This document shows positions 1 to 40,686 of a stretch of 64,000 nucleotides of DNA, in pieces. How positions within the stretch are numbered: the first letter of the stretch is position 1; the number at the start of each line of letters is the position of its first letter. Source of the stretch: Streptomyces sp. LUP30 (GTDB lineage: Bacteria > Actinomycetota > Actinomycetes > Streptomycetales > Streptomycetaceae); the NCBI RefSeq assembly GCF_001746365.1, contig NZ_MJAJ01000003.1, positions 188,251 through 252,250 of the forward strand, in the 5' to 3' direction. The position numbers were made by a program, and so were the translations under genes. Under the pieces are notes generated by a model. The model searched no databases. It saw only the letters and a program-made list of their open reading frames with translations, and had not been told where the DNA came from.

Positions 1-3000
1 CTGGAAGGTGTGGACGGTACCGACCCGGACCCGGTCGTCGTTCCGCCACATCCGGGCCAGTGTCTCCTTCTGCGCCCGGAACGGCGTGACCACTCCCACC
101 GTCGTGTCCGGCGGAAGTCCCGCCAGCAGTCCGTCGACCACGCGCCGGACGGCCTCCGCCTCCGCCGCGTTCCGCCAGGACCTCCCGTCGCCGCCGCGCG
201 CGGACGCCCCGGACGGTACGTCGACCCAACCCAGTACCGGTGCCGGGTCCGCCACTCCGACCGGGTCGTGCGCCGGTACCTGCCGCCGCACGTCGGTCAG
301 CACCCGCAACCGGCCGCCGTAGCAGTGGCCGTTGACGACGTCCGCGATCCGCGGGTGGCAACGGTAGTGCTCGTCGAGGAGCAGCGCGCCGTCGCCGTGC
401 TGTTCGGCCGCGTGGTACGAGGAGTACACGTGGTAGGCGAGGCGCTGGTGCTCCAGTTGCGCGGCGCTCAGTCCGGCCCGCGTCCGTGCCTGCCGCTCCT
501 GCTGCGGTGACACTCCGGGGATGTGCCCGAGCTGCATGGGGTCACCGATGATCAGCGCCCGACGGGCCCGGAACAGCAACGGCAGCACCGAGGGTATGGA
601 GCACTGGCTCGCCTCGTCGATGACCACGAGATCGAACAGCTTGGGGGTGAGTTCCAGCTGCCGCACCGAATGGGTGCTGACGGCCCATCCCTTGATGTGC
701 GTCATCAGGTTCTTCTGGCTTCGCTGGTAGCCGGATCGGCGGCGGAGCGCCTGGAGCCGCTGGTTCATGAGCGCGGTGGCCCGGTCGAGGGTCTCGGCGG
801 ACAGCGCACGGGACAGTTCCGCCGCCAGGCCGGACAACGCCGCCGCCGTTGCCGACCGAGACGCCTTGAGCCCTTCCTCGTCCCAGTCCTCCTGTCTGCG
901 GACGAGCTCGCGCACCTCTCGTTCCATGGTCACGATCCCAGCCAGGGATTCCAACAACTCGGGCGGCACCGGTCGTTCCGTCGCCCACTCCGGCCACGCC
1001 GGTCCGGGCCGCTCTGGCTGCTCCGGCCCGGCCGAGACCAGCGAGGCGAGCGCACGCCCACGCCGCCATGGTCCCAGCTGCCACCAGCCGGCCCCGGCCG
1101 TCTTCCGCGCCCGCTCCGCCCACCGGTCCAGCGCTGCCGGGCCGTCCGCGTCCACCGACCAGACCCCCTCCAGGAGGGACAGGGCCAGCTCCAGCTCGGC
1201 GGCCCGCTCCTCCCGGTCGCGGAGCAGTTCCAGCAGACGTGTCTCCTCACCGACGTGGTGCGCCGCTTCCGCCCGCAGCTGGTCTGCCGTGCTCCGGGTG
1301 TTGCGCAGATCGCCGCCGACGATCGCCGATCCGCGTCGCGGCGCGGTGACCGGTTCGGCGAGCAGCCGTTCCAGTTTGGCCGCCTCCCGCTCCAGCGCCT
1401 CCGCGTTTCCCGTCCGCATCAGCAGACCGGGCGCGATGTCGTCGCAACGCTCGGCCACGACGTTCACGGCCTCGTTGTTGGTGGAGGCGACCAGCACCGA
1501 CTGCCCCGCGGCGACGCAGGTGGTGACGACCGCCGTGACGACCTCGCTCTTGCCCGTGCCGGGCGGCCCCGTCGCCACCGTCAGCGGCTGTGTCATCGCC
1601 GAGGAGATCACCTGTTCCTGGCTCTCGTTGCACGGCCCTGGAGCGACGGGTGCCACCGGGCTCGCCGAGGCTGCCGTCGCGGCCGGCGCCTCTCGGGCCC
1701 CGCCGTCCAGCAGCGCGTCCAGGGCGGTGCCCGTGATCTGGGCGGTCCGCGTGGAGATCTCGAGCAGGTTGTCCACCAGCGCCTGGGTGGCCACGGCCTC
1801 CGCACCGGACGGCACCAGCAGCACGGCTGCGTTGTGCGCGCCGGGCCGCAGTGCCTGCATGACCGTGCGGTCGCTGAGCGCGGACGGGTCCAGCGGTTCG
1901 AGTTCCGGCAGTCCCAGCTCCCCCAGCAACTCCCTTATGGCGCGAAGCATCTGGACGTCGTTGCCCTCCTGCCAGGCCGGCTGCCAGCGGGCGACCAGGT
2001 CGGCGGCGTCGCCCGCGTCCAGGAATTCCGAGACGACCCCGGTGTGCAGGGACGGCACGCCGCTGGGCCGGAGCACGTCCCTGCCGTCCTCGTCCGGCGC
2101 CAGCTCCATCTGCTGGAGGAGCAGCGGCGCCAGCTCGACCGCCGCGCGCCGCCCCCGCCCGCCGTCCCGTGAGGGAAGCGTGATCGCCGGATACCCGTAC
2201 CAGTACTCCTGTCGGGTCCCCGCCTCGGCGCCCGAACCGGTCCGAACGTCCTGAGGCCGGGGCAGTGATCCGGGCGCGACGATGTGCGGTCCGCGGCCCG
2301 ACTGAACGACCTCCTCGCCCTGGGTCAGCAGGAAGTACTTCGTGTTCAGTCCGCCGTCCCGGTCGGGCCGCATCCCGGCCGCCGCCTGCGCGGTGAGGCA
2401 GTCCGCGTAGTACCGCAGCAGCCGCTGAGGGGCGACGCCGTCCCGTTCATCCGCCTCGGCCGCTTCCCGCGCCTTGATCAGCGCGGGGGAGCGCAGGGCG
2501 GCCTCGGTGGCGTCGTGGGGCGGCATGGGAAGCCGCACCGGTCGTGCCACCGACCGGGCGAAGGGCAGGCTCCGGGTGGCCCTGATCGTGGACTTGGTGG
2601 GCCGCTGCTCCTCAGGGACGCCTTCGCGGGCCATCTGGGCGGTCAGGTAGTCGAAGAGGTCGTCCGGGGTGATCCAGCCGCCGTCCTTGATCCGGCCGTT
2701 GCGCAGCCCTTCGACGATCTCCCCGGTGAACCGGGAGGTGCCGAGGTCCGATCCCTGCGGCGCCATCGCGGAGGCCGCCTGGAGGGCATCGGACGCGGTG
2801 ATGAAGTACACGCCGGTCGGCCGCAGCAGGGTGCTCGGCGCGGTCCGGTCCGGTTGTCCCGCCGGACCCTTGGCGGTCCAGCCCTGGACGACGGAGCCGC
2901 TGGAGCAGCAGTCGAGCAGGACCAGTTTGGAGGCGGCCCGGCAGGACTGCAGCATCCGCTCCAGGAACTCCGCCGGCACGGCCGTGCCCGGCAGGTCGGC

Positions 3001-3309
3001 GGGGTCGGTGTCGCGGGTCAGGAAGTACAGCTGGCCGTCCTGCTCGCAATACTCGCCGTGGCCGCTGAAGTAGAGCAGCGCGGTCTCACTGGGCTGCCGG
3101 GCCTCCAGGAACGTCTCGACGGCGTGCAGCATCTCCGCGCGTGTCGGCTCGGCGGCCACCTCGCACGCGTTGTACATGCCGATCTCGGTGTTCTCCAGCA
3201 CCGCCCGCATGTAGTGCAGATCGGCCCGCACGGCGGAGAGGTCCTGGTACACCTCGCTGTCGTACATGGAGACGCCGACGAGTAAGGCATGACGGTCGTT
3301 GTCGGTCAT
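1..3309 (-). CDS. Caspase-like peptidase fused to SF1 (Upf1/Dna2-like) helicase; C-terminus beyond left edge
   Basis: The frame is open from ATG at 3309 to the left edge (1103 codons visible), so the C-terminus is missing. The N-terminal ~250 residues are a C14 caspase/metacaspase fold. It opens with HALLVGVSMY, has catalytic His84 in YFSGHGEY and catalytic Cys135 in LLDCCSSG. A middle part of ~300 residues is unassigned. The C-terminal half is an SF1 helicase with Walker A GPPGTGKS (581-588), motif II DEASQ (898-902), motif III GDPMQLGHI and LDEHYRCHP. Motif V-like VGTVHTFQ lies at the very edge. The start is 6 nt after the upstream small membrane gene, so the two are probably one operon. 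Inferred role: a helicase sensing foreign or damaged nucleic acid that triggers the protease, as in suicide-type conflict systems. Domain calls are firm; the role is not proven. Confidence 0.9.
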   Translation of the reverse strand, partial: MTDNDRHALLVGVSMYDSEVYQDLSAVRADLHYMRAVLENTEIGMYNACEVAAEPTRAEMLHAVETFLEARQPSETALLYFSGHGEYCEQDGQLYFLTRDTDPADLPGTAVPAEFLERMLQSCRAASKLVLLDCCSSGSVVQGWTAKGPAGQPDRTAPSTLLRPTGVYFITASDALQAASAMAPQGSDLGTSRFTGEIVEGLRNGRIKDGGWITPDDLFDYLTAQMAREGVPEEQRPTKSTIRATRSLPFARSVARPVRLPMPPHDATEAALRSPALIKAREAAEADERDGVAPQRLLRYYADCLTAQAAAGMRPDRDGGLNTKYFLLTQGEEVVQSGRGPHIVAPGSLPRPQDVRTGSGAEAGTRQEYWYGYPAITLPSRDGGRGRRAAVELAPLLLQQMELAPDEDGRDVLRPSGVPSLHTGVVSEFLDAGDAADLVARWQPAWQEGNDVQMLRAIRELLGELGLPELEPLDPSALSDRTVMQALRPGAHNAAVLLVPSGAEAVATQALVDNLLEISTRTAQITGTALDALLDGGAREAPAATAASASPVAPVAPGPCNESQEQVISSAMTQPLTVATGPPGTGKSEVVTAVVTTCVAAGQSVLVASTNNEAVNVVAERCDDIAPGLLMRTGNAEALEREAAKLERLLAEPVTAPRRGSAIVGGDLRNTRSTADQLRAEAAHHVGEETRLLELLRDREERAAELELALSLLEGVWSVDADGPAALDRWAERARKTAGAGWWQLGPWRRGRALASLVSAGPEQPERPGPAWPEWATERPVPPELLESLAGIVTMEREVRELVRRQEDWDEEGLKASRSATAAALSGLAAELSRALSAETLDRATALMNQRLQALRRRSGYQRSQKNLMTHIKGWAVSTHSVRQLELTPKLFDLVVIDEASQCSIPSVLPLLFRARRALIIGDPMQLGHIPGVSPQQERQARTRAGLSAAQLEHQRLAYHVYSSYHAAEQHGDGALLLDEHYRCHPRIADVVNGHCYGGRLRVLTDVRRQVPAHDPVGVADPAPVLGWVDVPSGASARGGDGRSWRNAAEAEAVRRVVDGLLAGLPPDTTVGVVTPFRAQKETLARMWRNDDRVRVGTVHTFQ

Positions 3310-3315
3310 CGCCGC

Positions 3316-3696
3316 TCAGCCCGCCGTCGTGCCGTCGCCGCCGTCCGCGAGGAACCGCTCGACCAGCGTGTCGTCCTCGCGAGCCTCCTTGCCGGTGATG
3401 TGCAAGACCGCCCCGTCGGGCCGCTTGACCACAATGGTGCGTTGAGGGATACGCGCAAGCCACACCTGCACCAGCGCGGCGACGAACGAACCGGCGCTCA
3501 GCAGCAGCCCGATGGTCTCGGCGGACGGGCCGCCCTTGTCGCCGGCCCCTGCCAGGCTGCCCGGTTCGGGCAGATCCAGCGTGGCCGCGGAGTCCGCCTC
3601 GGCGAGAGCGGCGAGCAGTTCGCGTGCGTCCTTGCGGGCGCGCAACGGGTCATCGTCGACGACGGAGATCCGGTATCCGCTGTGGTTGTCGGGCAT
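3316..3696 (-). CDS. EACC1-like small membrane-anchored partner of the caspase
   Basis: A 126-residue protein. I chose ATG 3696 because GGGGGAG lies about 9 nt upstream; the frame extends further up but without a better start. It has an N-terminal soluble segment (1-45), a linker, one predicted transmembrane helix (about 61-82) and a short basic beta-rich tail (RTIVVKRPDGAVLHITG). This layout and tail resemble the 'effector-associated constant component 1' (EACC1) family, which co-occurs with caspase and trypsin effectors in actinobacterial conflict operons. Its stop is 6 nt before the caspase-helicase start, so the two are translationally linked. It may tether or hold the effector at the membrane (inference). 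Family assignment is by eye only. Confidence 0.72.
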   Translation of the reverse strand: MPDNHSGYRISVVDDDPLRARKDARELLAALAEADSAATLDLPEPGSLAGAGDKGGPSAETIGLLLSAGSFVAALVQVWLARIPQRTIVVKRPDGAVLHITGKEAREDDTLVERFLADGGDGTTAG

Positions 3697-12838: not shown

Positions 12839-13486
12839 TCATTCCCCCAGGTCGAGAGTGAGTTTGGTGACGGCGAACGCCTCGGCGTAGCGCGCGTGGC
12901 ATTCGATTCCGCGGATCCGGGCAAGACCGAGGAACGCCTCCCGGTCGTACCAGGGCCGGTGCCGCTGCGAGGGGTAGTGCTCCTGCAGCAGCCGCACCTT
13001 CCGCTCGGCGACCTCGTCCGACAGCGGCTGGTACGCCGTCGGGCGGCCGAGGTCGCCGTCCCACTTGACGATCTCGTAGCCGAGCACGAGATGGTCGCGG
13101 AACGCGGTGGGTATCAGCTGCGCCAGACCGCGGTGGTCCTGGTGCGCGTCGTCGGTGCGCGGGGCGAGGATCAGGTCCGGCTCGGTCCTGCCGCGCAGCT
13201 CCTCGACCGCGGCCTTGGCCTCGTCCCAGTACACCGGCAGCCGGCCGTCCGGCAGCTTGTGCACGGTCAGCCGCAGGTCGGCCCCCGGGCAGAACGCGGC
13301 GAGCGCGGCCTGCTCCTCCTGCTCGCGCTCGCTGCCGCCGCCGGAGAGCACCAGCGCGTCGACGCGGATGCCCGGCCGGGCCAGGCACAGCGTCAGCAGC
13401 GTGCCGCCGGCGCCGATGGCGATGTCGTCGCAGTGCGCGCCCACCGCGACGATCCGGTCGGGGCGTCCGGCCCCGAGCCGTATCAC
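12839..13486 (-). CDS. PIG-L family deacetylase (LmbE-like)
   Basis: 215 residues. GAHCDDIAIGAGGT near the N-terminus is the Zn-binding HxDD motif of PIG-L/LmbE N-acetyl deacetylases, and TDDAHQDHRGL supplies the second histidine block. GTG 13486 overlaps the upstream nucleotidyltransferase stop (GTGA). In this operon it could deacetylate an N-acetylated NDP-sugar or lipid-linked sugar, leaving a free amine (inference). Related enzymes also act on mycothiol precursors, but the operon context argues against that. Confidence 0.87.
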   Translation of the reverse strand: MIRLGAGRPDRIVAVGAHCDDIAIGAGGTLLTLCLARPGIRVDALVLSGGGSEREQEEQAALAAFCPGADLRLTVHKLPDGRLPVYWDEAKAAVEELRGRTEPDLILAPRTDDAHQDHRGLAQLIPTAFRDHLVLGYEIVKWDGDLGRPTAYQPLSDEVAERKVRLLQEHYPSQRHRPWYDREAFLGLARIRGIECHARYAEAFAVTKLTLDLGE

Positions 13487-14292
13487 GCGGTCCTCGTCGC
13501 GGCGGCCGACGCGGCGCCGTCGCGTTCCCACACGGCCCACGGGCGATCGCCCCGGGCGTAGGCCTCGTCGAGCGCGGCCCGCTCCTTCACGGTGTCGGTC
13601 GGCTTCCAGAAGCCGCGGTGCTGGTGCGCCACCAGCCGCCCCTGCTTGGCCAGTTGGGCGCACCCGTCGGCGACCAGGTCCCCGTTCTCCGGGATGTGGT
13701 CGAAGATCTCCTGGCGGAGCACGAAGTAGCCGCCGTTCTCCCACAGCGGCAGCTGGCTCACCGCGGTGATGCCGCCCACCAGGCCGTCCTCGCCCAACTC
13801 CACGCAGTGGAACGAGGACTGCGGCGGCACCACCATCATCGACGCACCGGCGTCGCGCCGGGCGAACCGGTCGATCATCTCGGGCAGCGGGGCGTCGGTG
13901 AGCACGTCGGCGTAGTTGGCGAGGAACATCTCGTCGCCGTCCAGATGGTGCCGCACCCGGCGCAGCCGCTCCCCGATCGGCGACTCGACGCCGGTCTGCA
14001 CGAACGTGACGGTCCAGTCCGAGATGTCGGTGGACAGCAGCTCGGTCCGCCCGCCGCGCAGCACGAAGTCGTTGGACGTCGTCTCCTCGTAGTTGAGGAA
14101 GAAGTCCTTGATGTGGTGGGCCCCGTACCCGAGGCACAGGATGAACTCCGTGTGCCCGAAGTGCGCGTAGTAGCGCATGACGTGCCAGATCAGCGGCCGG
14201 GGGCCGACCATCGCCATCGGCTTGGGCACGTCGTCGGAGGCTCCGTTGCGCATCCGCATCCCGTATCCGCCGCAGAACAGTACGACCTTCAT
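13483..14292 (-). CDS. Sugar-1-phosphate nucleotidyltransferase, glucose-1-phosphate cytidylyltransferase-like
   Basis: 269 residues. FCGGYGMRMR and DVPKPMAMVG form the nucleotide-binding signature (variant of GGxGTRL...KPM). GYGAHHIKDFFLNYEETTSN and GFWKPTDTVKE are typical of RfbF-type cytidylyltransferases. Coupled by ATGA to the methyltransferase gene upstream and by GTGA to the PIG-L gene downstream. It probably makes the CDP- or other NDP-activated precursor of the branched or deoxy sugar. The nucleotide choice (CTP or dTTP) is not certain from sequence. Confidence 0.85.
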   Translation of the reverse strand: MKVVLFCGGYGMRMRNGASDDVPKPMAMVGPRPLIWHVMRYYAHFGHTEFILCLGYGAHHIKDFFLNYEETTSNDFVLRGGRTELLSTDISDWTVTFVQTGVESPIGERLRRVRHHLDGDEMFLANYADVLTDAPLPEMIDRFARRDAGASMMVVPPQSSFHCVELGEDGLVGGITAVSQLPLWENGGYFVLRQEIFDHIPENGDLVADGCAQLAKQGRLVAHQHRGFWKPTDTVKERAALDEAYARGDRPWAVWERDGAASAAATRTA

Positions 14293-15524
14293 GACGCGAC
14301 CTCGACGATGCTCAGTTCCGGTATGGGAAAGACCAGTCGGCCGCCCCATTCGTGCACGAAGGACAGCTGCTCGACCAGCTCGGCCCGCAGGTTCCACGGG
14401 AGGACGAGGACGTAGTCCGGTTTGTCGGCGGCGATCTGCTCCGGCGGCAGGATCGGGATGCGGGTGCCCGGAGTGAACCTGCCGTGCTTGTAGGGGTTGC
14501 GGTCGACCGTGTACGGGAGCAGGTCGGGCCGGACGCCGCAGTGGTTGAGCAGGGTGTTGCCCTTGCCCGGGGCGCCGTAGCCGACGACCGTCTCACCGCG
14601 CTCGGCCGCCTCGATGAGGAACTTGAGGAGGTCCCGGCGCACCTTGGCCACCCGGGCGGAGAACTCGGTGTACCCCGACAGCTCCTGAAGACCGGCGGCC
14701 TTCTCCCGGTCCAGCACGTCGGTCACCCGCGCGGAGGGCTCGCCCGCCGCCTCGGCCGGCCGGGCCCACAGCCGGATCGAGCCGCCGTGCGTGGGCAGCA
14801 ACTCGACGTCCACCAGCGCGAGTCCGCCGCTCTCCAGCGCCCGGATCGCGGAGGCGACCGTGTAGTACTGGAAGTGCTCGTGGTAGATCGTGTCGTACTG
14901 GTTCTCCTCGATCAGGGTCAGCAGGTGCTGCACCTCGATCGAGACCCAGCCGTCGTCGGCGACCAGGGCGCGCAGCCCCCGGGTGAACCCGACCACGTCG
15001 GGGATGTGCGCGTACACGTTGTTGGCCACGACCAGGTCCGCCGGGCCGTGCTCGGCGCGGACGCCGGCGCCCGTGGCCGGGTCCAGGAACGCCGTGAGCG
15101 TGGGCACGCCCGCGTCCCGCGCCGCGGCGCCGACGTTCACCGAGGGTTCGACGCCGAGGCAGCGGATCCCGCGGTCCCGTACGTGCTTCAGCAGGTAGCC
15201 GTCGTTGCTCGCGACCTCGACCACGAAGGCGTCGGCCCCCAGGCCCAGCCGTCGAACGGAGTCGGCGACGAACGTGCGCGCGTGCTCCACCCAGGAGGTC
15301 GAGTAGGACGAGAAGTACGCGTACTGCGTGAACGTCTCCTCCGGCGTGATCAACGGGGGGATCTGCGCGAGCCAGCACTCGGTGCAGACCCGCAGATGCA
15401 GCGGGTACGCCGGCTCGGGCCGGTCCAGTTGGTCCGCGGCGAGGAAACTCTCGCATGGTGGCGTCGCCCCGAGATCGACGACGCTCGCCATCGCTTCCGA
15501 GCCGCAGAGTCGGCATCGTGTCAT
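14289..15524 (-). CDS. NDP-hexose C-methyltransferase with zinc-binding N-terminus
   Basis: 411 residues. The N-terminal zinc module has Cys4/Cys7 (CRLCGSE) and Cys47/Cys50 (CTECW). The SAM-binding core has VEVASNDGYLLKHV and GVEPSVNVGAAAR. VGYGAPGKGNTLLNHCG marks the C-terminal domain found in TylC3-like sugar C3-methyltransferases and their relatives. YHEHFQYYTVAS is the conserved catalytic block. The ATG overlaps the upstream GT4 stop (ATGA). It predicts a C-methyl-branched sugar in the polymer (inference from family). Confidence 0.9.
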   Translation of the reverse strand: MTRCRLCGSEAMASVVDLGATPPCESFLAADQLDRPEPAYPLHLRVCTECWLAQIPPLITPEETFTQYAYFSSYSTSWVEHARTFVADSVRRLGLGADAFVVEVASNDGYLLKHVRDRGIRCLGVEPSVNVGAAARDAGVPTLTAFLDPATGAGVRAEHGPADLVVANNVYAHIPDVVGFTRGLRALVADDGWVSIEVQHLLTLIEENQYDTIYHEHFQYYTVASAIRALESGGLALVDVELLPTHGGSIRLWARPAEAAGEPSARVTDVLDREKAAGLQELSGYTEFSARVAKVRRDLLKFLIEAAERGETVVGYGAPGKGNTLLNHCGVRPDLLPYTVDRNPYKHGRFTPGTRIPILPPEQIAADKPDYVLVLPWNLRAELVEQLSFVHEWGGRLVFPIPELSIVEVAS

Positions 15525-35256: not shown

Positions 35257-38200
35257 TCACCAGTTCGTGCCGATCGATGACACCCGGATCCGCAGGAGCT
35301 CCTCGACCACGTGGTCCGCTGAGAAGGCGTGTTGCAGGTCCTGGACCAGGTGGACCAGCGTCTGGAGCATGTAGTCCATGGTGATGAACCGGGCCTGCGT
35401 GCCCTGTTCCTCAAGGACGGTGCGCGCGCCGGTGTCCACACCTCGAACGATGACGCGAGCGGGTCTGCCCGCCACGGCCTTGGCGCCCTCGGCGGTGAGC
35501 GAGAACTGCTTGGGCACCAGGACGTCGACGGTGGCCCGGCTGACCGGAGCGGTCCATACCGTCACGGCGAACGACCCCTCGACCACCGTGTCCGAGACCT
35601 CGACCCCCATGTCGCGCACGGTTTCGCACAGGCGGTCCAGATAGTCCTTCGCCGTCTCCGTGTTGTCCAGGTCGTGCGAGAGTTCCGCGAACGTCTCGCC
35701 CTCGGTCCCCGGAATGGTCTCGCCGGCCATCTCGACGCCCACCCGCTCGAGCTGTCTGCGTTCGTCCTCCATCCTGCTCTCGATGGTGTGCCGGACGATC
35801 TCGCGCTCGTTCTCGTCGAGCACCTTGTGCAACGCTTCGGCGTCCACCAACGCCGACAGCGGCTCCAGTTCCTCTCCGTCGGCGAGCTTGGCCAGGCGCT
35901 CACGATGGAGCGAAGGGATCCGCATCCGCGACACCCGCGCGAGCCACGTCGGCAGCCCGGACTCCACGCGCTGTGCCAACGCTTGGACGCGGAAGGAGTG
36001 GTCGACGCCGTCCTCGCCCACGCAGAGCTCGGCGGCGGCCCGCAGATATCCCGCGACCTGTTCGCAGAGCTGCTCGACGTCCGCGTAGTACAGCTTCACC
36101 GACGGAGCCCTGTTCTTGCCACGGTCCGGCTGCTCCGCCGATTGGACGACGCCCCCGATCCGCTTGGCCATCTCCTCGTAGGGGACGCCGTTCAGCCATT
36201 CCCACGCGACGACCGCGCGGAGCAACGCGTTGGCGTCCTCGGTCGCCAGCGCGTCCTCGTCGACTCCGAGGAGCTGACGCAGCTCCTCGGAGACGACCTG
36301 GTTGCCCTCGCTGAGCAGCCGTTCGGGTATGGCCGGCCCTTTGGCCGCGATGTACCGCAGGCAGAAGTGGCGCTTGGTCGGCATCTCCGGCGAGTCCTTC
36401 GGCAGGCAGTGCGCCAGCAGAAGGGTGAGCACACTGCCTTTGAGGGAAGGCATGTGATTGCTCGTGGGCTGTCCCGGCAGCGCCACCCAGGCGGTCACCC
36501 GCTGCACGGAACGCGCCTTGAACGCATGCCACAGCAGGTCGAGGTGGCCCTTGTTCTCGATGGCGAGATGCGCCAGATGCTGCAGTTCCGCCGCGTCGTC
36601 GAGTTCCAGGCCCGACTGCCCGAGGGCCTGCCCCAGCGGAGACAAGGACACCACCTCCTCGCCGCCCCGATACCCCTCGCCCTCACTGAAGACCAGAAGA
36701 TTCCGGCTCTCCAGTTCGCGCAGGACGTCCTCGGCGACGGGGATGTCGGGAGAGTCGGGCTCGTAGGAGATGAGCAGCCCGGAAAGGATCTCCGAGACGC
36801 GGTCGAGCCACTGGCGTCGGGTGAGCCCACTGCGTCCCTGGCACAGGACCTGGAGGACGAGACCGCTGATCTGCAGCGTGTCGCGGAACTGGGAGCGCAC
36901 TTTGAGCGAGCGGTCGTCACTGGCGACGAAGTGTTGGTAGATGCCCTCCTCCGTGGCGAGGGCCTTGACGCTCTCCGGGCTCAGGCCCTCGATCTCCTGG
37001 AGATCCCGGTCGGACGGCACGAGGATGTAGAACTTCCCACGCTGAGATTCGACCGTTCGGTCGAGCCGCCGACCCGCCCGGCCGCCCTTGTTGTCCAGGT
37101 CGGCTGCCCGCAGGAGGCGCCGCATGCGACTGGACCCCTCGCCCGACCAGCCGGACACGCTCGTCGCGATGACGATGTCGGCGGGCAGGTTGAGTCCCAC
37201 CGCCAGGGTGTCCGTGGCCACGATCACCCGCAGCAGTCCGTCGGGCTCCCGGAACTCGTCCTCCACCTGGCGTCGGAGCGGCGGTGCCAGCGCCGCGGTG
37301 TGAAAGGCGACGCCGTGGCGCAGGCCGCGCATCACCAGGTCCTGCAGTGGCAGGTCCGAGTTCTTCAGTTTCTCGTACAGGTGGCCCTCTGTGTCCCTCT
37401 TCTGCGACTCGGGCCCGTGGTACCGGCCCCCTCGCCAGGGCGATCCGCGCCGGCCGACCGTCCGCTGACCGCTCGTGCCCTGCAGCAGGTCCTGAATGGC
37501 GAGGGCCAGGCTCTGCGCGATGGTCCGGCCGGGAACGAAGACGATGATCCGTTTGTCGGGATCCTCGGACAGGGAGCGGACGACCAGGGCGGCCGCGAGC
37601 GGTGCCGTGGACAGCCTCGTTCCGGGGAGCCCTTCGAAGCGCAAGGACAGCGTCTCGGCGTGCTTGGCGCGTATGTCGCCGAGTTCGTGCTCCTCCTCGT
37701 ACGGAGCCGCCGGCGGCCGCGTCTCGCCCGGCATGCTCAGCAGATGTGCCTCCTTCTGCACCAGCCACTTTCTGGGGCCGACCACGTAGGTGTCGAGCGG
37801 CACCGGCCGTACGTTGGTGAAGTGCCTCCGCAGCAGGCGGCCGTGCCCGAGCCAGTGCTCCAACGTCTCCCCGGCTTCCGGGGACAGAGCGGCGGACAGG
37901 CCCAGGAGGGCAGGCTGGTCTTCGCGGGGCAGCATCTTCACCAACGTGAGCAGGGCCTCCAGCTTGGCGGCCCGCTCGCTTCGCTCCACCAGCATCTGCA
38001 GCTCGTCCACCACCAGCAGGGCGCTGCGACGCAGTGGCATGAGCCGGTGCACGAGATACACGCCGAGCTTCTCGTAGATGGCCAGCGCGACGTCGTAGGA
38101 GCCCGAGCCGACCGGCCGGTCGTTCTCCGGATAGTCCCGCGACGCCGGATAGACACGCAGCCTCTTCATGTCCGGGTTCCCACGCTGCAATCCCTGCCAC

Positions 38201-38934
38201 TCGGTGTGTTCCTGGGTCACGAGGGCTTTGATGGGCAGCAACATCATCGAGGCCTTGCCCGAATTCACGGCCATGGTCATGCCGAAGCGGGCCAGCGTGG
38301 TCTTGCCGCTGTTGGTGACGGCGTAGATGAGGCCGACCCCTCGCTGGTCGACGATCTCCCGGCACAGAATGAGGAGCTGCTGCTGGAAAACGGACAGTCC
38401 GGCCCAGGGGCCCAGCCGCTCCTCCCAGCCCTCCAGCAGGGCGTTCCTGAGGTCCGGTCGGTCACCGGCAGGGAGCAGCTCTCCGTATCCGCGGATGGTG
38501 GGCCCCGAACGGCCGATCTCGGACTCGGGCTGCCCCGGCTGGATCACCGCGCCTCCGAGGCTCTCCAGGACGATGGGGGCGGGAGCCGGACGGCCCAGCC
38601 TCGCGAAGATCGGCTGTTGGCCCGCGGTCTGGTCCTCGTAGGCCCGTTGGGCGAGATCCCGCCAGCCCAGTGACACCGCTCCCGATTCGGCGCGCTCGCG
38701 GACGTGTTCCCAGAAGACGGCGTTGCTTGCCGCGGCGGGCGGCTGCTCCTGGGGCGGAAAGCCCAGGTCCCGCAGGAACCTGTTCCTCTCGCCGGAATCC
38801 AGGTATGCCGAACTCAGTCCGGAGCGCAGTTCGTCCCAGTCCTCCCGTGTGATGTCCCAGCCGCCCGGAGTCGGCGGCGCCTGCTCGGGCACTGCGTCGG
38901 CCGACGGCGGCTCGGACACGTCGTTGAACGGCAT
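35257..38934 (-). CDS. EAD-domain Ski2-like SF2 helicase
   Basis: 1225 residues; AAAGGAG lies 5 nt before ATG 38934. Residues about 26-113 are a helical effector-associated (death-like) domain: LRSGLSSAYL, FLRDLGFPP, FWEHVRERAESGAVSLGW, then PIFARL. The helicase core has motif I AVTNSGKTT with Lys211, motif II VVDELQ (310-313, a DExH variant), motif III LGLSAAL, motif V ATDTLAVGLNLPADI and motif VI KGGRAGRR (about 616-623). This is closest to Ski2/Mtr4/Brr2-type helicases. The C-terminal ~550 residues are unassigned. It starts 76 nt after the EAD-CHAT peptidase, whose EAD has the same spacing, so the two probably assemble through these domains. Likely nucleic-acid sensor or remodeller of a conflict system (inference). 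Confidence 0.9.
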   Translation of the reverse strand: MPFNDVSEPPSADAVPEQAPPTPGGWDITREDWDELRSGLSSAYLDSGERNRFLRDLGFPPQEQPPAAASNAVFWEHVRERAESGAVSLGWRDLAQRAYEDQTAGQQPIFARLGRPAPAPIVLESLGGAVIQPGQPESEIGRSGPTIRGYGELLPAGDRPDLRNALLEGWEERLGPWAGLSVFQQQLLILCREIVDQRGVGLIYAVTNSGKTTLARFGMTMAVNSGKASMMLLPIKALVTQEHTEWQGLQRGNPDMKRLRVYPASRDYPENDRPVGSGSYDVALAIYEKLGVYLVHRLMPLRRSALLVVDELQMLVERSERAAKLEALLTLVKMLPREDQPALLGLSAALSPEAGETLEHWLGHGRLLRRHFTNVRPVPLDTYVVGPRKWLVQKEAHLLSMPGETRPPAAPYEEEHELGDIRAKHAETLSLRFEGLPGTRLSTAPLAAALVVRSLSEDPDKRIIVFVPGRTIAQSLALAIQDLLQGTSGQRTVGRRGSPWRGGRYHGPESQKRDTEGHLYEKLKNSDLPLQDLVMRGLRHGVAFHTAALAPPLRRQVEDEFREPDGLLRVIVATDTLAVGLNLPADIVIATSVSGWSGEGSSRMRRLLRAADLDNKGGRAGRRLDRTVESQRGKFYILVPSDRDLQEIEGLSPESVKALATEEGIYQHFVASDDRSLKVRSQFRDTLQISGLVLQVLCQGRSGLTRRQWLDRVSEILSGLLISYEPDSPDIPVAEDVLRELESRNLLVFSEGEGYRGGEEVVSLSPLGQALGQSGLELDDAAELQHLAHLAIENKGHLDLLWHAFKARSVQRVTAWVALPGQPTSNHMPSLKGSVLTLLLAHCLPKDSPEMPTKRHFCLRYIAAKGPAIPERLLSEGNQVVSEELRQLLGVDEDALATEDANALLRAVVAWEWLNGVPYEEMAKRIGGVVQSAEQPDRGKNRAPSVKLYYADVEQLCEQVAGYLRAAAELCVGEDGVDHSFRVQALAQRVESGLPTWLARVSRMRIPSLHRERLAKLADGEELEPLSALVDAEALHKVLDENEREIVRHTIESRMEDERRQLERVGVEMAGETIPGTEGETFAELSHDLDNTETAKDYLDRLCETVRDMGVEVSDTVVEGSFAVTVWTAPVSRATVDVLVPKQFSLTAEGAKAVAGRPARVIVRGVDTGARTVLEEQGTQARFITMDYMLQTLVHLVQDLQHAFSADHVVEELLRIRVSSIGTNW

Positions 38935-39010
38935 GGCGACTCCTTTGCGGGAGGCGGAGGGAGATGCGGTCGGTCGGATGCTGCGGCAAGCGTCTACGGG
39001 AGGGGGCCGC

Positions 39011-39985
39011 TCAGGCGGTCTCGGGCAGGACGATCAGACCCGTCCGGAGGCTTCGGCACATGGCTGCCTGGTTGACGGTGTCCTGCGCCGCGAAGTGCGC
39101 GGCGGCGGCTATCTCCCTCGCGGCGGCCGAGGAGGACAGCGCTGCGAGTTCGCGATAGAAGCCGGTGGCGAAGAGCACGGCGCACTCGGCGTCCAACGCG
39201 CCGCGGTGCGCGATGACGATGTCCGCGTACGGCGTGAAACGCTCGGCCGTGTGCTCGCTGTCGCAGGACCGCAGGAGCAGTGCCCGGAGTCGGTGACCGC
39301 GGTGCTCGGCCACCAGCTTCAACGTGTCCGCGAGATCGTCCGCGGCCAGGTGGTGTGCCTCGCCGTGCGCGTCCTCCAGAACGAGCGTGTCCTGCGTACC
39401 GTGGCAGGCCAGGTGCAGCACGTGCGGCAGAACGGAGCGGATCTCGGCGAGGTCGGCGCCACCGGCGGCCGGGAAGAGCCGTACGTCCAGGCGACCGCGG
39501 GCTTCCCTGACGACCTCCCGCAGCTCGGCGGCCGCCCGGTTGACGCCGTACCGAGCAGGCTCCGCGCCCAGCACCATCACGCGCAACCGGTCGTCCGCCC
39601 CTTTCGGCGGATCACCGGCCTCGGCCGAGGCGGAGGCGTCCCCCGGCCGCCGTGTCGCCGCTGAGGCGAACAGGGAGTGGAAGGGATGCTCGGCATGAGC
39701 CTTGGCCAGGATGCGGTCCCGGCCCGCCGCCATGGCCCCGTTCTCCAGCTCCGCCGAGACCTGACTCCAGAAGTTGCCCATGGTGATCGCTCCGGCGGGC
39801 ACCGCGGAGGCGGGATATCCGGCGGAGCGCAGCATCAGTTGAGCCTGCTGTGCCGAACGGTAGACCTCGGCCAGCGCCTGGACCTCTTCCCGGAGCAGGG
39901 GGGCGCGGTCCGTGCTCCCACCGGCACGGGGGACGCCGGGCGGGTGGTCTCCGGCGGCCGTGGCATCGGTGCCCGTGTGCGTCAC
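39011..39985 (-). CDS. EAD-CHAT caspase-like peptidase
   Basis: 324 residues from GTG 39985, which overlaps the upstream gene stop (GTGA). Residues about 28-107 are an effector-associated helical domain: LMLRSAGYPASAVP, NFWSQVSAELENGAMAAG, then FHSLFASA. It aligns with the helicase N-terminus in FW, GA..G and P-F spacing. A Pro/Ala linker follows. Residues about 135-324 form a CHAT domain: RVMVLGAEP, catalytic His195 in LHLACHGTQD, and catalytic Cys241 in LLLRSCDSEHT, with IVIAHRGALDAEC after it. CHAT peptidases act as regulated proteases, many in suicide-type immunity. Targets are unknown. Domain calls are strong by motif; the alignment should be tested with a profile. Confidence 0.9.
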   Translation of the reverse strand: MTHTGTDATAAGDHPPGVPRAGGSTDRAPLLREEVQALAEVYRSAQQAQLMLRSAGYPASAVPAGAITMGNFWSQVSAELENGAMAAGRDRILAKAHAEHPFHSLFASAATRRPGDASASAEAGDPPKGADDRLRVMVLGAEPARYGVNRAAAELREVVREARGRLDVRLFPAAGGADLAEIRSVLPHVLHLACHGTQDTLVLEDAHGEAHHLAADDLADTLKLVAEHRGHRLRALLLRSCDSEHTAERFTPYADIVIAHRGALDAECAVLFATGFYRELAALSSSAAAREIAAAAHFAAQDTVNQAAMCRSLRTGLIVLPETA

Positions 39986-40686
39986 AGGAATGCCTTCAAG
40001 TGCAGCGGGTCGGGCAGTTCCCGGCTGAAACGGCGCAGCAGCGGCGCCTCGACCCCGGCGGTCACCGTACATCTCAGCTCCGCCTCGGAGCCGGCTCCGG
40101 ACCGTACGACGAGGCTGAGCGGGTAGGTGCCGGTCAGCTCGGTCGCCGTGGTCGGCCTGAAGTCCCAGGACGGTGACGAGCCGCCGAGGTCGAGTGCCTG
40201 GACGAGAGGCTGGTTGGCGATGTAGCCGACCGACCGGCTCATCTCGCCCAGAGCGGCGTCCGCGCCGAGCAGAGAGAGTTGCGGACCGAGCCGCCGAACG
40301 CGCTCCACCTGGACGGGGTCGGTCAGCCGGATCGGGTCCATCGAATGGGCGACGGGGTTCGGGCCCCACCCGGACACGAGTTGGACCGAGACGTTCGCGA
40401 ACTTCAGCCGCGGGCCACGGAGTTGAGGGACAAAGGTGACGGATAACCGGACCAGGTAGTGGTCATAGAGCGTGGCCTGCTCCTCCGCGTACCGGGCGAG
40501 GTCCGGATCCGCCGAGAGCTCCTTCGGAGTCAGGCGTACGGCATGAGGCCCGCCGAGCCGAATGCGGCCGGCCAGGGACTTCGGCTCACCTGCCGTCCCG
40601 GGGGGCGACTCCCCGCCGCGGGCCGGGTCGTCAGCCGTGAGGACGATGTCCTGAGCAGTCAACTGAGGATCAGCCAGCTCGATCAT
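39982..40686 (-). CDS. Unknown beta-rich protein coupled to the EAD-CHAT peptidase
   Basis: 234 residues; GAAAGGGTGG precedes ATG 40686 by about 5 nt. No family is recognised. The sequence looks mostly beta-stranded (YDHYLVRLSVTFVPQLRG, KFANVSVQLVSGW, TGTYPLSLVVRSG, AELRCTVTAGVEAPL). It has no signal peptide or membrane helix. Its stop overlaps the CHAT gene start (GTGA), so the two proteins are made together, and it is the first gene of the three-gene unit. It may be the sensor, inhibitor or substrate of the protease (inference). It has no EAD of its own. Confidence 0.8.
   Translation of the reverse strand: MIELADPQLTAQDIVLTADDPARGGESPPGTAGEPKSLAGRIRLGGPHAVRLTPKELSADPDLARYAEEQATLYDHYLVRLSVTFVPQLRGPRLKFANVSVQLVSGWGPNPVAHSMDPIRLTDPVQVERVRRLGPQLSLLGADAALGEMSRSVGYIANQPLVQALDLGGSSPSWDFRPTTATELTGTYPLSLVVRSGAGSEAELRCTVTAGVEAPLLRRFSRELPDPLHLKAFL

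What the first reader, a model, noticed from the sequence alone, without database searches (positions are those of the whole stretch)
35257..40686. Three-gene EAD-CHAT protease / EAD-Ski2 helicase / beta-protein island
Seen: a beta-rich protein of unknown family overlaps (GTGA) a CHAT peptidase with intact His195/Cys241, followed 76 nt later by a 1225-residue SF2 helicase. Both peptidase and helicase begin with an ~85-residue helical domain whose landmarks align (LR.LGFP/LRSAGYP, FW, ESGA/ENGA, then P-F). Known: effector-associated domains bring conflict-system parts together by homotypic contacts, and CHAT proteases are death effectors. Inference: the helicase detects foreign nucleic acid or stalled RNA, recruits the protease through EAD-EAD contact, and the beta protein is sensor, inhibitor or substrate. 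I know of no described system with this exact trio.
Basis: partly seen in the sequence, partly recalled or inferred. Interest (0 to 1): 0.92.

Follow-up and report, generated by a model that had tools for sequence, protein, structure and literature searches.

The report
Helicase and caspase-like protease island
A Streptomyces gene trio pairs a DNA-repair-type helicase with a caspase-like protease through matching adaptor domains, next to a new partner protein of that protease, and it looks like an alarm-and-execution circuit resembling animal antiviral sensing, although nothing about its action has been tested.

Summary
Three co-directional genes encode a 234-aa beta-rich protein, an EAD1-CHAT peptidase and an EAD1-Ski2/Hel308-like helicase. 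Pfam finds EAD1 in both enzymes above its cut-off, and a search of the whole 9.18 Mb genome finds only these two EAD1 copies. The trio recurs intact in 5 of 5 complete helicase loci found; the 4-nt beta-CHAT overlap is kept in 6 of 6. (1) The beta protein accompanies CHAT peptidases, not the helicase: 25 of 30 examined family members have CHAT within 2 kb, including large CHAT proteins without EAD1. (2) Beta plus EAD1-CHAT also sits in a locus resembling the published EAD1/ubiquitin-like-conjugation systems. CHAT catalytic residues are kept in six surveyed genomes with another EAD1 protein and lost in six of one clade without any. Best reading: the helicase senses abnormal DNA, recruits and activates the protease through EAD1 contacts, and the protease acts on the beta protein. 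The wiring is well supported by genomics; ligand, substrate and defence role are inference. It is a new variant of EAD-coupled conflict systems.

The parts
39982..40686 (-). beta-rich 234-aa protein, first gene of the operon; undescribed family that accompanies CHAT peptidases
   Evidence: no Pfam/NCBIfam/PADLOC match for it and none convincing for 20 family members
40255..40296 (-). beta residues 131-144, the only invariant run of 6 or more residues in six trio-type beta proteins; candidate protease recognition or cleavage segment (inference)
   Evidence: 3 of 20000 permutations reach a run of 14; lies in the worst-modelled stretch
39011..39985 (-). EAD1-CHAT peptidase, 324 aa, GTG start overlapping the beta stop by 4 nt
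39650..39889 (-). EAD1 domain of the CHAT protein (residues 33-112)
   Evidence: PF19955, 8.2e-9
39119..39544 (-). CHAT domain match (residues 148-289), holding His195 and Cys241
35257..38934 (-). EAD1-Ski2/Hel308-like SF2 helicase, 1225 aa
38629..38856 (-). EAD1 domain of the helicase (residues 27-102)
   Evidence: PF19955, 7.3e-6
37876..38331 (-). DEAD domain, RecA1 (residues 202-353), with Lys211 and motif II Asp310-Glu311
   Evidence: motif names recalled
37072..37317 (-). Helicase_C, RecA2 (residues 540-621)
35278..35685 (-). C-terminal alpha/beta domain (about residues 1084-1219), faster-evolving than the core, not covered by the structural matches listed

Best explanation
The trio is a protease-based conflict (probably anti-phage) module. 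The Hel308-like helicase is the sensor and engages abnormal or replication-derived DNA. Its N-terminal EAD1 contacts the EAD1 of the CHAT peptidase and recruits or clusters it when the helicase is engaged. The activated CHAT peptidase then acts on the beta protein, its dedicated partner, most likely by cleaving it to release or unlock an executor. Shown here: domain content, EAD1 homology, only two EAD1 copies found in the genome, conserved operon, constant beta-CHAT pairing, intact catalytic motifs. Inferred: DNA as the ligand, direction of signalling, EAD1-EAD1 contact, cleavage of beta, and the biological outcome. My own split (judgement): EAD1 coupling of helicase and protease about 0.75; helicase upstream about 0.65; beta as substrate or executor about 0.45.
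For: EAD1 in both proteins, homologous by profile comparison with shuffled controls, and the only two EAD1 matches in the genome (22 candidates, all scored). A profile of the helicase EAD1s scores the trio CHAT EAD1s (26-33 bits, 6 of 6) above the four outside EAD1s tried (14-21 bits). Trio in the same order in window, L067, L068, L075, L076; L112 cut by a contig end. Beta-CHAT overlap of 4 nt in 6 of 6 loci. Two helicase relatives without a detected EAD1 (L079, L080) show no beta or CHAT in their fetched surroundings with the trio's own profiles. CHAT dyad kept in trio loci 6 of 6 plus L113 and L115; lost in 6 of 6 EAD1-CHAT genes of a clade whose genomes show no second EAD1. Beta-CHAT adjacency 25 of 30. 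Purifying selection on all three genes (omega 0.17, 0.35 and 0.19, window vs L075). Other proteases are fused to helicases: caspase-Ski2 proteins L073 and L074, caspase-SF1 helicase at window 1-3309. Published precedents, passages read: Hachiman's sensor helicase (PMC12278908), its protease/pro-nuclease variant (PMC12799240), CHAT protease Csx29 cleaving Csx30 of its own locus (PMC10028731).
Against: No experiment. In the other direction of the EAD1 comparison, a profile of the CHAT EAD1s scores the four outside EAD1s (48-75 bits; three of them from other beta-linked CHAT genes, one from an EAD1-NB-ARC gene) above the helicase EAD1s (18-41 bits), so the two neighbours are not mutual best relatives. 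EAD1-CHAT plus beta exists without a second EAD1 match in six genomes of one clade. The beta gene persists where CHAT is dead (omega 0.11-0.48) or missing (pairs with those: 0.39-0.74), so it may have a role of its own. The helicase's nucleic acid is not settled by fold. The beta model is poor (pLDDT 49.9). The trio is rare (3 of 295 genus genomes).
Confidence: 0.5

Rival explanations
1. The beta protein is not a substrate but a regulatory subunit, chaperone or inhibitor that keeps CHAT inactive; the substrate lies elsewhere.
For: It pairs with CHAT whatever the architecture, including large CHAT proteins without EAD1, and overlaps CHAT as the upstream gene in trio loci. In the Canu system CanB forms a complex with the caspase CanA (PMC12799240, passage read).
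Against: The beta gene is retained, open and under some constraint, where CHAT is dead or missing, which a pure inhibitor would not explain; the invariant 14-residue segment in a predicted loop also fits a recognition or cleavage site, though it would fit an inhibitory contact as well.
Confidence: 0.3
2. The helicase is an RNA (Ski2/Mtr4-like) sensor and the trigger is foreign or stalled RNA.
For: Brr2, Ski2 and Mtr4 chains also match: profile E from 3e-32 (Brr2) to 4e-16 (Mtr4); Mtr4 Z 23.8 and Brr2 Z 23.7.
Against: Best Foldseek rows are Hel308/Hjm and then Pol-theta DNA helicases; the best NCBIfam models are ATP-dependent DNA helicases including Hel308, all far below their cut-offs. The Z differences are within 1, so this is a lean, not a proof.
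Confidence: 0.25
3. Reverse direction: the helicase is an effector recruited through EAD1, and CHAT with beta are the sensing or regulatory part.
For: SF2 helicases occur as effector-side parts in MoxR-vWA systems (PMC7159879, passage read). The beta-CHAT pair is the portable, constant part.
Against: Hachiman puts the helicase in the sensing role (PMC12278908), and proteases fused to helicases fit that order; in the one other beta-CHAT locus where a second EAD1 gene was read (L113) it is an EAD1 protein with a weak E2-like match, not an executioner.
Confidence: 0.12
4. It is a developmental or stress cell-death switch of Streptomyces rather than an immune system.
For: Such systems are reported mainly in multicellular prokaryotes (PMC7159879); a beta-EAD1-CHAT locus sits in one conserved chromosomal place in several species.
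Against: The helicase trio is rare and patchy (3 of 295 genus genomes with a near full-length helicase), is found in different surroundings, and one copy is a deletion remnant; this pattern fits accessory defence genes better.
Confidence: 0.15

Closest known systems
EAD1-coupled conflict systems (Kaur et al. 2020, 2021; PMC7159879, PMC8195603; passages read)
   Same: Same adaptor domain (EAD1) on two proteins encoded side by side, one of them a caspase-like effector; bacteria with a multicellular habit.
   Different: No MoxR-vWA, VMAP, GAP1, ubiquitin-like or STAND match among the three genes; the EAD1 carrier is a Ski2/Hel308-like helicase; an undescribed beta protein is part of the module. 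The helicase passages of the 2020 paper name SWI2/SNF2, type-I-restriction-like and SF1 helicases as effector-side parts; its figures and supplementary tables were not seen.
Hachiman (HamAB) and its protease/pro-nuclease variant (PMC12278908, PMC12799240; passages read)
   Same: Ski2-like helicase as probable sensor controlling a separate effector; in the variant a protease and a proteolytically activated partner.
   Different: No HamA match in the trio; CHAT instead of a trypsin-like protease; EAD1 coupling instead of a fusion to HamA.
Type III-E CRISPR Craspase (Csx29 TPR-CHAT with Csx30; PMC10028731, passages read)
   Same: A CHAT peptidase with a dedicated partner encoded in the same locus.
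   Different: No Cas7-11 match in the trio; a helicase rather than guide RNA as the likely sensor; beta has no profile match to any PDB chain at E up to 1.
RIG-I-like receptors with CARDs and animal caspases (recalled knowledge)
   Same: SF2 helicase with an N-terminal helical adaptor, and a caspase-like protease with the same adaptor.
   Different: EAD1 is not shown to be a CARD; the helicase branch differs; the parallel is analogy only.

Membership tests
EAD-coupled conflict systems | the same EAD on two proteins encoded by adjacent genes, one an effector or enzyme | tested here: met
   PF19955 above the cut-off in both; only two matches in the genome
EAD-coupled conflict systems | neighbouring EADs more alike to each other than to other EADs | tested here: inconclusive
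   both directions: helicase-EAD profile scores trio CHAT EADs 26-33 bits and four outside EADs 14-21 (met); CHAT-EAD profile scores the same four outside EADs 48-75 bits and helicase EADs 18-41 (not met). In the paper it is a tendency, not a requirement
EAD-coupled conflict systems | a published core (MoxR-vWA, GAP1-GTPase, NucA-trypsin or EACC1-caspase) in the locus | tested here: inconclusive
   Pfam on the three proteins and the two nearest called genes shows none; other genes of the surroundings were not scanned. An EACC1-caspase pair lies 31.6 kb away in the window
CHAT peptidase (PF12770) | CHAT fold with catalytic His and Cys | tested here: met
   25.8 bits with its neighbours, cut-off 24; 22.9 bits on the protein alone, below it; profile matches CHAT structure 8tl0 at 1.4e-8; dyad present
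Hachiman | HamA (DUF1837) encoded with HamB | tested here: not met
   PADLOC finds no HamA in the trio; the two nearest called genes have no such Pfam match
Hachiman | full-length HamB-type helicase | tested here: inconclusive
   best-scoring HamB model, best stretch covers 80 of 1163 positions; HamB 8vxa Z 21.8, rmsd 4.4, 618 residues, against Hjm 24.3, rmsd 4.3, 643 residues
Craspase / type III-E | Cas7-11 effector and guide RNA | tested here: inconclusive
   no such PADLOC match in the trio; neighbours not scanned for it and no CRISPR array search was run
Leukocidin/haemolysin-type beta pore-formers (beta protein) | sequence family membership | tested here: not met
   no such Pfam family among the matches of 20 members at E up to 1; no PDB profile match at E up to 1
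Leukocidin/haemolysin-type beta pore-formers (beta protein) | fold | tested here: inconclusive
   many such chains at Z about 9-10.5 (best 10.5, rmsd 3.7, 148 residues) but unrelated beta-sandwiches at 9.2-9.4; model pLDDT 49.9; Foldseek TM-scores to these toxins at most 0.26 in the rows shown

The most novel reading that the evidence does not exclude
A bacterial counterpart of the helicase-CARD-caspase logic: a Hel308-type helicase senses foreign or damaged DNA, assembles EAD1 filaments with a CHAT protease, and the protease unlocks a new class of beta-rich executor (possibly membrane-acting) that accompanies many CHAT proteases in Streptomyces and is shared as a cassette between unrelated sensors.
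Probability: 0.15. Interest if true: 0.9.

Novelty: new variant of a known kind. Interest (0 to 1): 0.7.

Why it matters
If true, it adds a nucleic-acid helicase to the sensors that drive bacterial caspase-like proteases through death-domain-like adaptors, close to the logic of RIG-I-like receptors. It gives a minimal two-EAD genome in which the homotypic-contact idea can be tested cleanly, because the two EAD1 domains are the only ones found in that genome. It also defines a new protein family that marks CHAT proteases and may be their substrate, which would give a handle on the largely unknown targets of bacterial CHAT proteins.

Tried and rejected
Foldseek's 50 rows reach a query TM-score of 0.33 and a target TM-score of 0.51 at most, and VIA-align gave tied beta-sandwich and pore-former rows, so no fold is claimed. 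A profile of 20 beta members found no PDB sequence at E up to 1.

Beta outside Streptomyces: 1 of 396 genomes of the phylum draw (236 genera) matched, the window's own; only 7 candidates per genome are scored, so distant members may be missed there and. The helicase searches scored 2 candidates per genome and their match lists are cut.

A Hachiman label was considered and dropped (no HamA). Descent of the trio helicase from the caspase-helicase fusions was tested by a tree: the fusions group with a Zixibacteriota helicase (89/85) and not inside the clade of the trio helicases with L079 and L080 (100/100); the tool warns that these joins are of long branches, so only separate arrangements are claimed.

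The name TPR-CHAT for the large CHAT proteins is recalled; Pfam found CHAT and nothing else in the three scanned (L114, L125, L128), so the report calls them large CHAT proteins.

Viral-contig, metagenome, plasmid, phage and E. coli collections were not searched. No complex model could be made with the tools.

Rows repeated or left out: L077 is the same contig as L067, L080 the same as L070, L041 the same protein as L073; each is counted once (L041 and L073 both stand in the tree). One of the 31 beta places (G150) was not in the HMM count; its locus L095 reads beta followed by an EAD1-CHAT-like gene (by eye), which would make 26 of 31. L129 was misaligned in the dyad check and is not counted there.
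Full report
WHAT IS THERE. Three genes lie on the minus strand in the order beta (39982-40686), CHAT (39011-39985), helicase (35257-38934); beta and CHAT overlap by 4 nt and a 76-nt gap precedes the helicase. The window is contig C56:188251-252250 of a 9.18 Mb genome. I take it for a Streptomyces because genomes of the same genus include G099 and G223, whose contigs equal named S. cahuitamycinicus and S. griseoaurantiacus contigs in length; this is inference.

DOMAINS. Pfam puts EAD1 in CHAT residues 33-112 (8.2e-9) and helicase residues 27-102 (7.3e-6), both over the curated cut-off; the helicase also has DEAD and Helicase_C. CHAT is below the cut-off on the protein alone (22.9 of 24 bits), above it with its neighbours in the genome search (25.8 bits), and its profile matches a solved CHAT protein (8tl0, 1.4e-8). 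His195 and Cys241 are present in 6 of 6 trio loci. Aligned as profiles of six sequences each, the two N-terminal regions give 97.5% probability and P 6.7e-12 over 77 columns; 50 column-shuffled controls reach at most 1.7%. Kinship of the two is not symmetrical: a helicase-EAD profile ranks the trio CHAT EADs (26-33 bits) over four outside EAD1s (14-21 bits), but a CHAT-EAD profile ranks the same outside EAD1s (48-75 bits) over the helicase EADs (18-41 bits). Three of the four outside ones are EADs of other beta-linked CHAT genes.

EXCLUSIVITY OF THE TWO EAD1 DOMAINS. A search of the whole own genome with EAD1 scored 22 candidates and found exactly two matches, these two genes. In G610, another trio genome, there are again exactly two; G099 has four (the trio pair plus an adjacent pair elsewhere, one of them an EAD1-trypsin gene); G136 has one by Pfam, its helicase copy being seen with the window helicase as query (41% over residues 17-98).

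CO-OCCURRENCE. Near full-length helicases of this type occur in 3 of 295 genus genomes (G000, G099, G136), with a C-terminal fragment in G195 and a 34% relative in G223. A class-wide draw of 296 genomes, 28 of them of the same genus with the own included, added none beyond G000 and G223 in its cut match list. A scan of the collection of 84,980 species genomes with two peptide patterns gave 7 loci, two of them already seen. Every complete EAD1-helicase locus found has the whole trio in the same order: window, L067, L068, L075 (S. althioticus) and L076 (S. griseomycini), 5 of 5. L112 has beta, CHAT and the EAD1 start of the helicase at a contig end; L078 is a helicase at a contig edge. G195 (L069) carries an internal deletion remnant with the first 61 residues of beta running into helicase residues from about 920. 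With gene starts as called by my script, the 4-nt beta-CHAT overlap is kept in 6 of 6 loci and the CHAT-helicase gap varies from 14 to 76 nt. The distant helicases L079 (Lentzea) and L080 show no EAD1, beta or CHAT in their fetched surroundings with the trio's own profiles. dN/dS between window and L075 is 0.17 (beta), 0.35 (CHAT) and 0.19 (helicase), while the linkers after both EAD1 domains evolve fast.

THE BETA PROTEIN BELONGS TO CHAT. A beta profile found 31 places in 29 of 392 Streptomyces genomes (7 candidates scored per genome). Of 30 places examined with CHAT profiles, 25 have a CHAT match within 2 kb; one of these, L140, is a short match 1.15 kb away. The five without are three members of one conserved chromosomal locus whose siblings keep EAD1-CHAT (L118, L123, L124), the G195 deletion remnant, and one contig end (L136). 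The place not examined so, G150, reads as beta then EAD1-CHAT. The own genome has ten CHAT matches, so chance adjacency would be of the order of half a percent (my arithmetic, no control run). Partners fall into: EAD1-CHAT with helicase; EAD1-CHAT alone; EAD1-CHAT in the L113 locus with a WD40 protein, a radical SAM protein, an E1-like ThiF (1.8e-44) and an EAD1 protein with an E2-like match (UQ_con 1.7e-4, below its cut-off); and CHAT proteins without EAD1, mostly large ones (1073-1392 aa in seven read), including the second copy in the own genome (L131). In three loci (L129, L137, L139) beta and CHAT converge, so adjacency survives inversion. The L113 arrangement resembles the published EAD1 plus ubiquitin-like-conjugation system with an EAD1-caspase effector (PMC7159879, PMC8195603; passages read). 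The beta-EAD1-CHAT pair therefore looks like a portable module served by different sensors. No member of 20 matches a known family convincingly (best Pfam E 0.015).

CATALYSIS FOLLOWS EAD1 PARTNERSHIP. In genomes surveyed for EAD1, EAD1-CHAT genes keep His and Cys in six genomes with another EAD1 protein (G000, G099, G136, G610, G236, G058) and have lost them in 6 of 6 genomes with no other match (L116, L117, L119, L120, L121, L122). The six losses share one locus and clade and count as one event. For G136 the second EAD1 is the helicase's, under the threshold. In that clade the beta gene stays open, with omega 0.11-0.48 among the six with a dead CHAT (15 pairs) and 0.39-0.74 in the 21 pairs that involve the three loci without CHAT; the dead CHAT genes themselves stay open at 0.33-0.80. 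So constraint is weaker than in the trio but not gone, which is against beta being useful only with an active protease.

HELICASE. Sequence profiles match Hel308/Hjm, Brr2, Ski2, Mtr4 and HamB (HamB 3.7e-16); NCBIfam's best are ATP-dependent DNA helicases including Hel308, far under their cut-offs. A model of residues 145-1225 (pLDDT 69) is closest to Hjm/Hel308 (Foldseek E 6.7e-24, target TM 0.76; VIA Z 24.3, rmsd 4.3, 643 residues), with Pol-theta 23.9, Mtr4 23.8, Brr2 23.7 and HamB 21.8. DNA is favoured, not proven. The last 140 residues or so form an alpha/beta domain in the model that the listed matches do not cover and that evolves faster than the core.

OTHER PROTEASE-HELICASE COUPLINGS. 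Two actinobacterial proteins fuse a caspase domain to a Ski2-like helicase (L073, L074), and window 1-3309 is a caspase-SF1 helicase preceded by EACC1. A tree does not place the Ski2 fusions inside the trio clade, so coupling in cis and in trans look like separate arrangements.

MECHANISM. I propose helicase sensing, EAD1-EAD1 recruitment and clustering of CHAT, and CHAT action on beta. Precedents in passages read: HamB senses DNA and controls the effector HamA (PMC12278908); in a Hachiman variant DNA sensing and oligomerisation activate a protease that unlocks a pro-nuclease (PMC12799240); the CHAT protease Csx29 cleaves Csx30 of its own locus (PMC10028731). In trio-type beta proteins residues 131-144 are the only invariant run of six or more (14 residues; 3 of 20000 permutations) and lie in the worst-modelled region, so they are my candidate for the recognition or cleavage site.

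CONTEXT. Four of 21 genomes in a relatives search, besides the own (G001, G007, G009, G011), share about 1.1 kb right of the island from window 41.36 kb, a MarR-like gene (under its Pfam cut-off) and a gene I recall as yceI-like, but nothing of the island, which fits an accessory insertion; the left boundary was not mapped. The G195 remnant lies near a DrmD/DpdE-like helicase, and the Lentzea helicase near an integrase and a methyltransferase.

LITERATURE. Eight full-text searches showed no paper on an EAD1-helicase or on this beta family among the rows listed; long hit lists were cut at 15 or 20 rows. CHAT domain with Streptomyces and helicase gave 0 papers. Only the held open-access library was searched, and figures and supplements of the two EAD papers were not seen. 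Of the papers cited I saw passages only.

Noticed in passing
window 1-3696 (minus strand): An EACC1 gene (3316-3696) followed by a caspase-SF1 helicase fusion running off the window's left edge: a published EACC1-caspase pair with a helicase C-terminus, with similarity to Mokosh MkoA in PADLOC.
   Followed up: partly
L073:1190-4207 and L074:8543-11632: Single proteins with an N-terminal caspase domain and a Ski2-like helicase (Peptidase_C14 4e-12 and 2e-13); L074 also has an EAD1-NB-ARC gene about 2 kb away.
   Followed up: partly
L113:30-9477: Beta plus EAD1-CHAT in one locus with WD40, radical SAM, ThiF E1 and EAD1-E2-like genes; the same genome has an EAD1-WD40 protein elsewhere (L151).
   Followed up: partly
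L116, L117, L119-L122: A clade of EAD1-CHAT genes that have lost the catalytic His and displaced the Cys but stay open, beside an intact beta gene, in genomes with no other EAD1 match.
   Followed up: partly
L069:9350-10417 and 13182-15362: Deletion remnant of the trio, with a DrmD/DpdE-like helicase gene (2.7e-161) about 3 kb away.
   Followed up: no
L131:5293-9980 (own genome, contig C100): Second beta copy of the window's genome, overlapping a 1311-aa CHAT protein.
   Followed up: partly
L079:2540-14815: Lentzea relative of the helicase without a detected EAD1, near a phage integrase and followed by an S1-domain protein with a weak TIR-effector match.
   Followed up: no
window 35278-35685: C-terminal alpha/beta domain of the helicase, with a strand-helix order that might be restriction-endonuclease-like but no catalytic residues that I could see; not tested alone.
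   Followed up: no
L158:649-2779 (G099): Adjacent EAD1-trypsin gene and EAD1 gene without another Pfam match in a trio genome; their EAD1s could in principle mix with the trio's.
   Followed up: no
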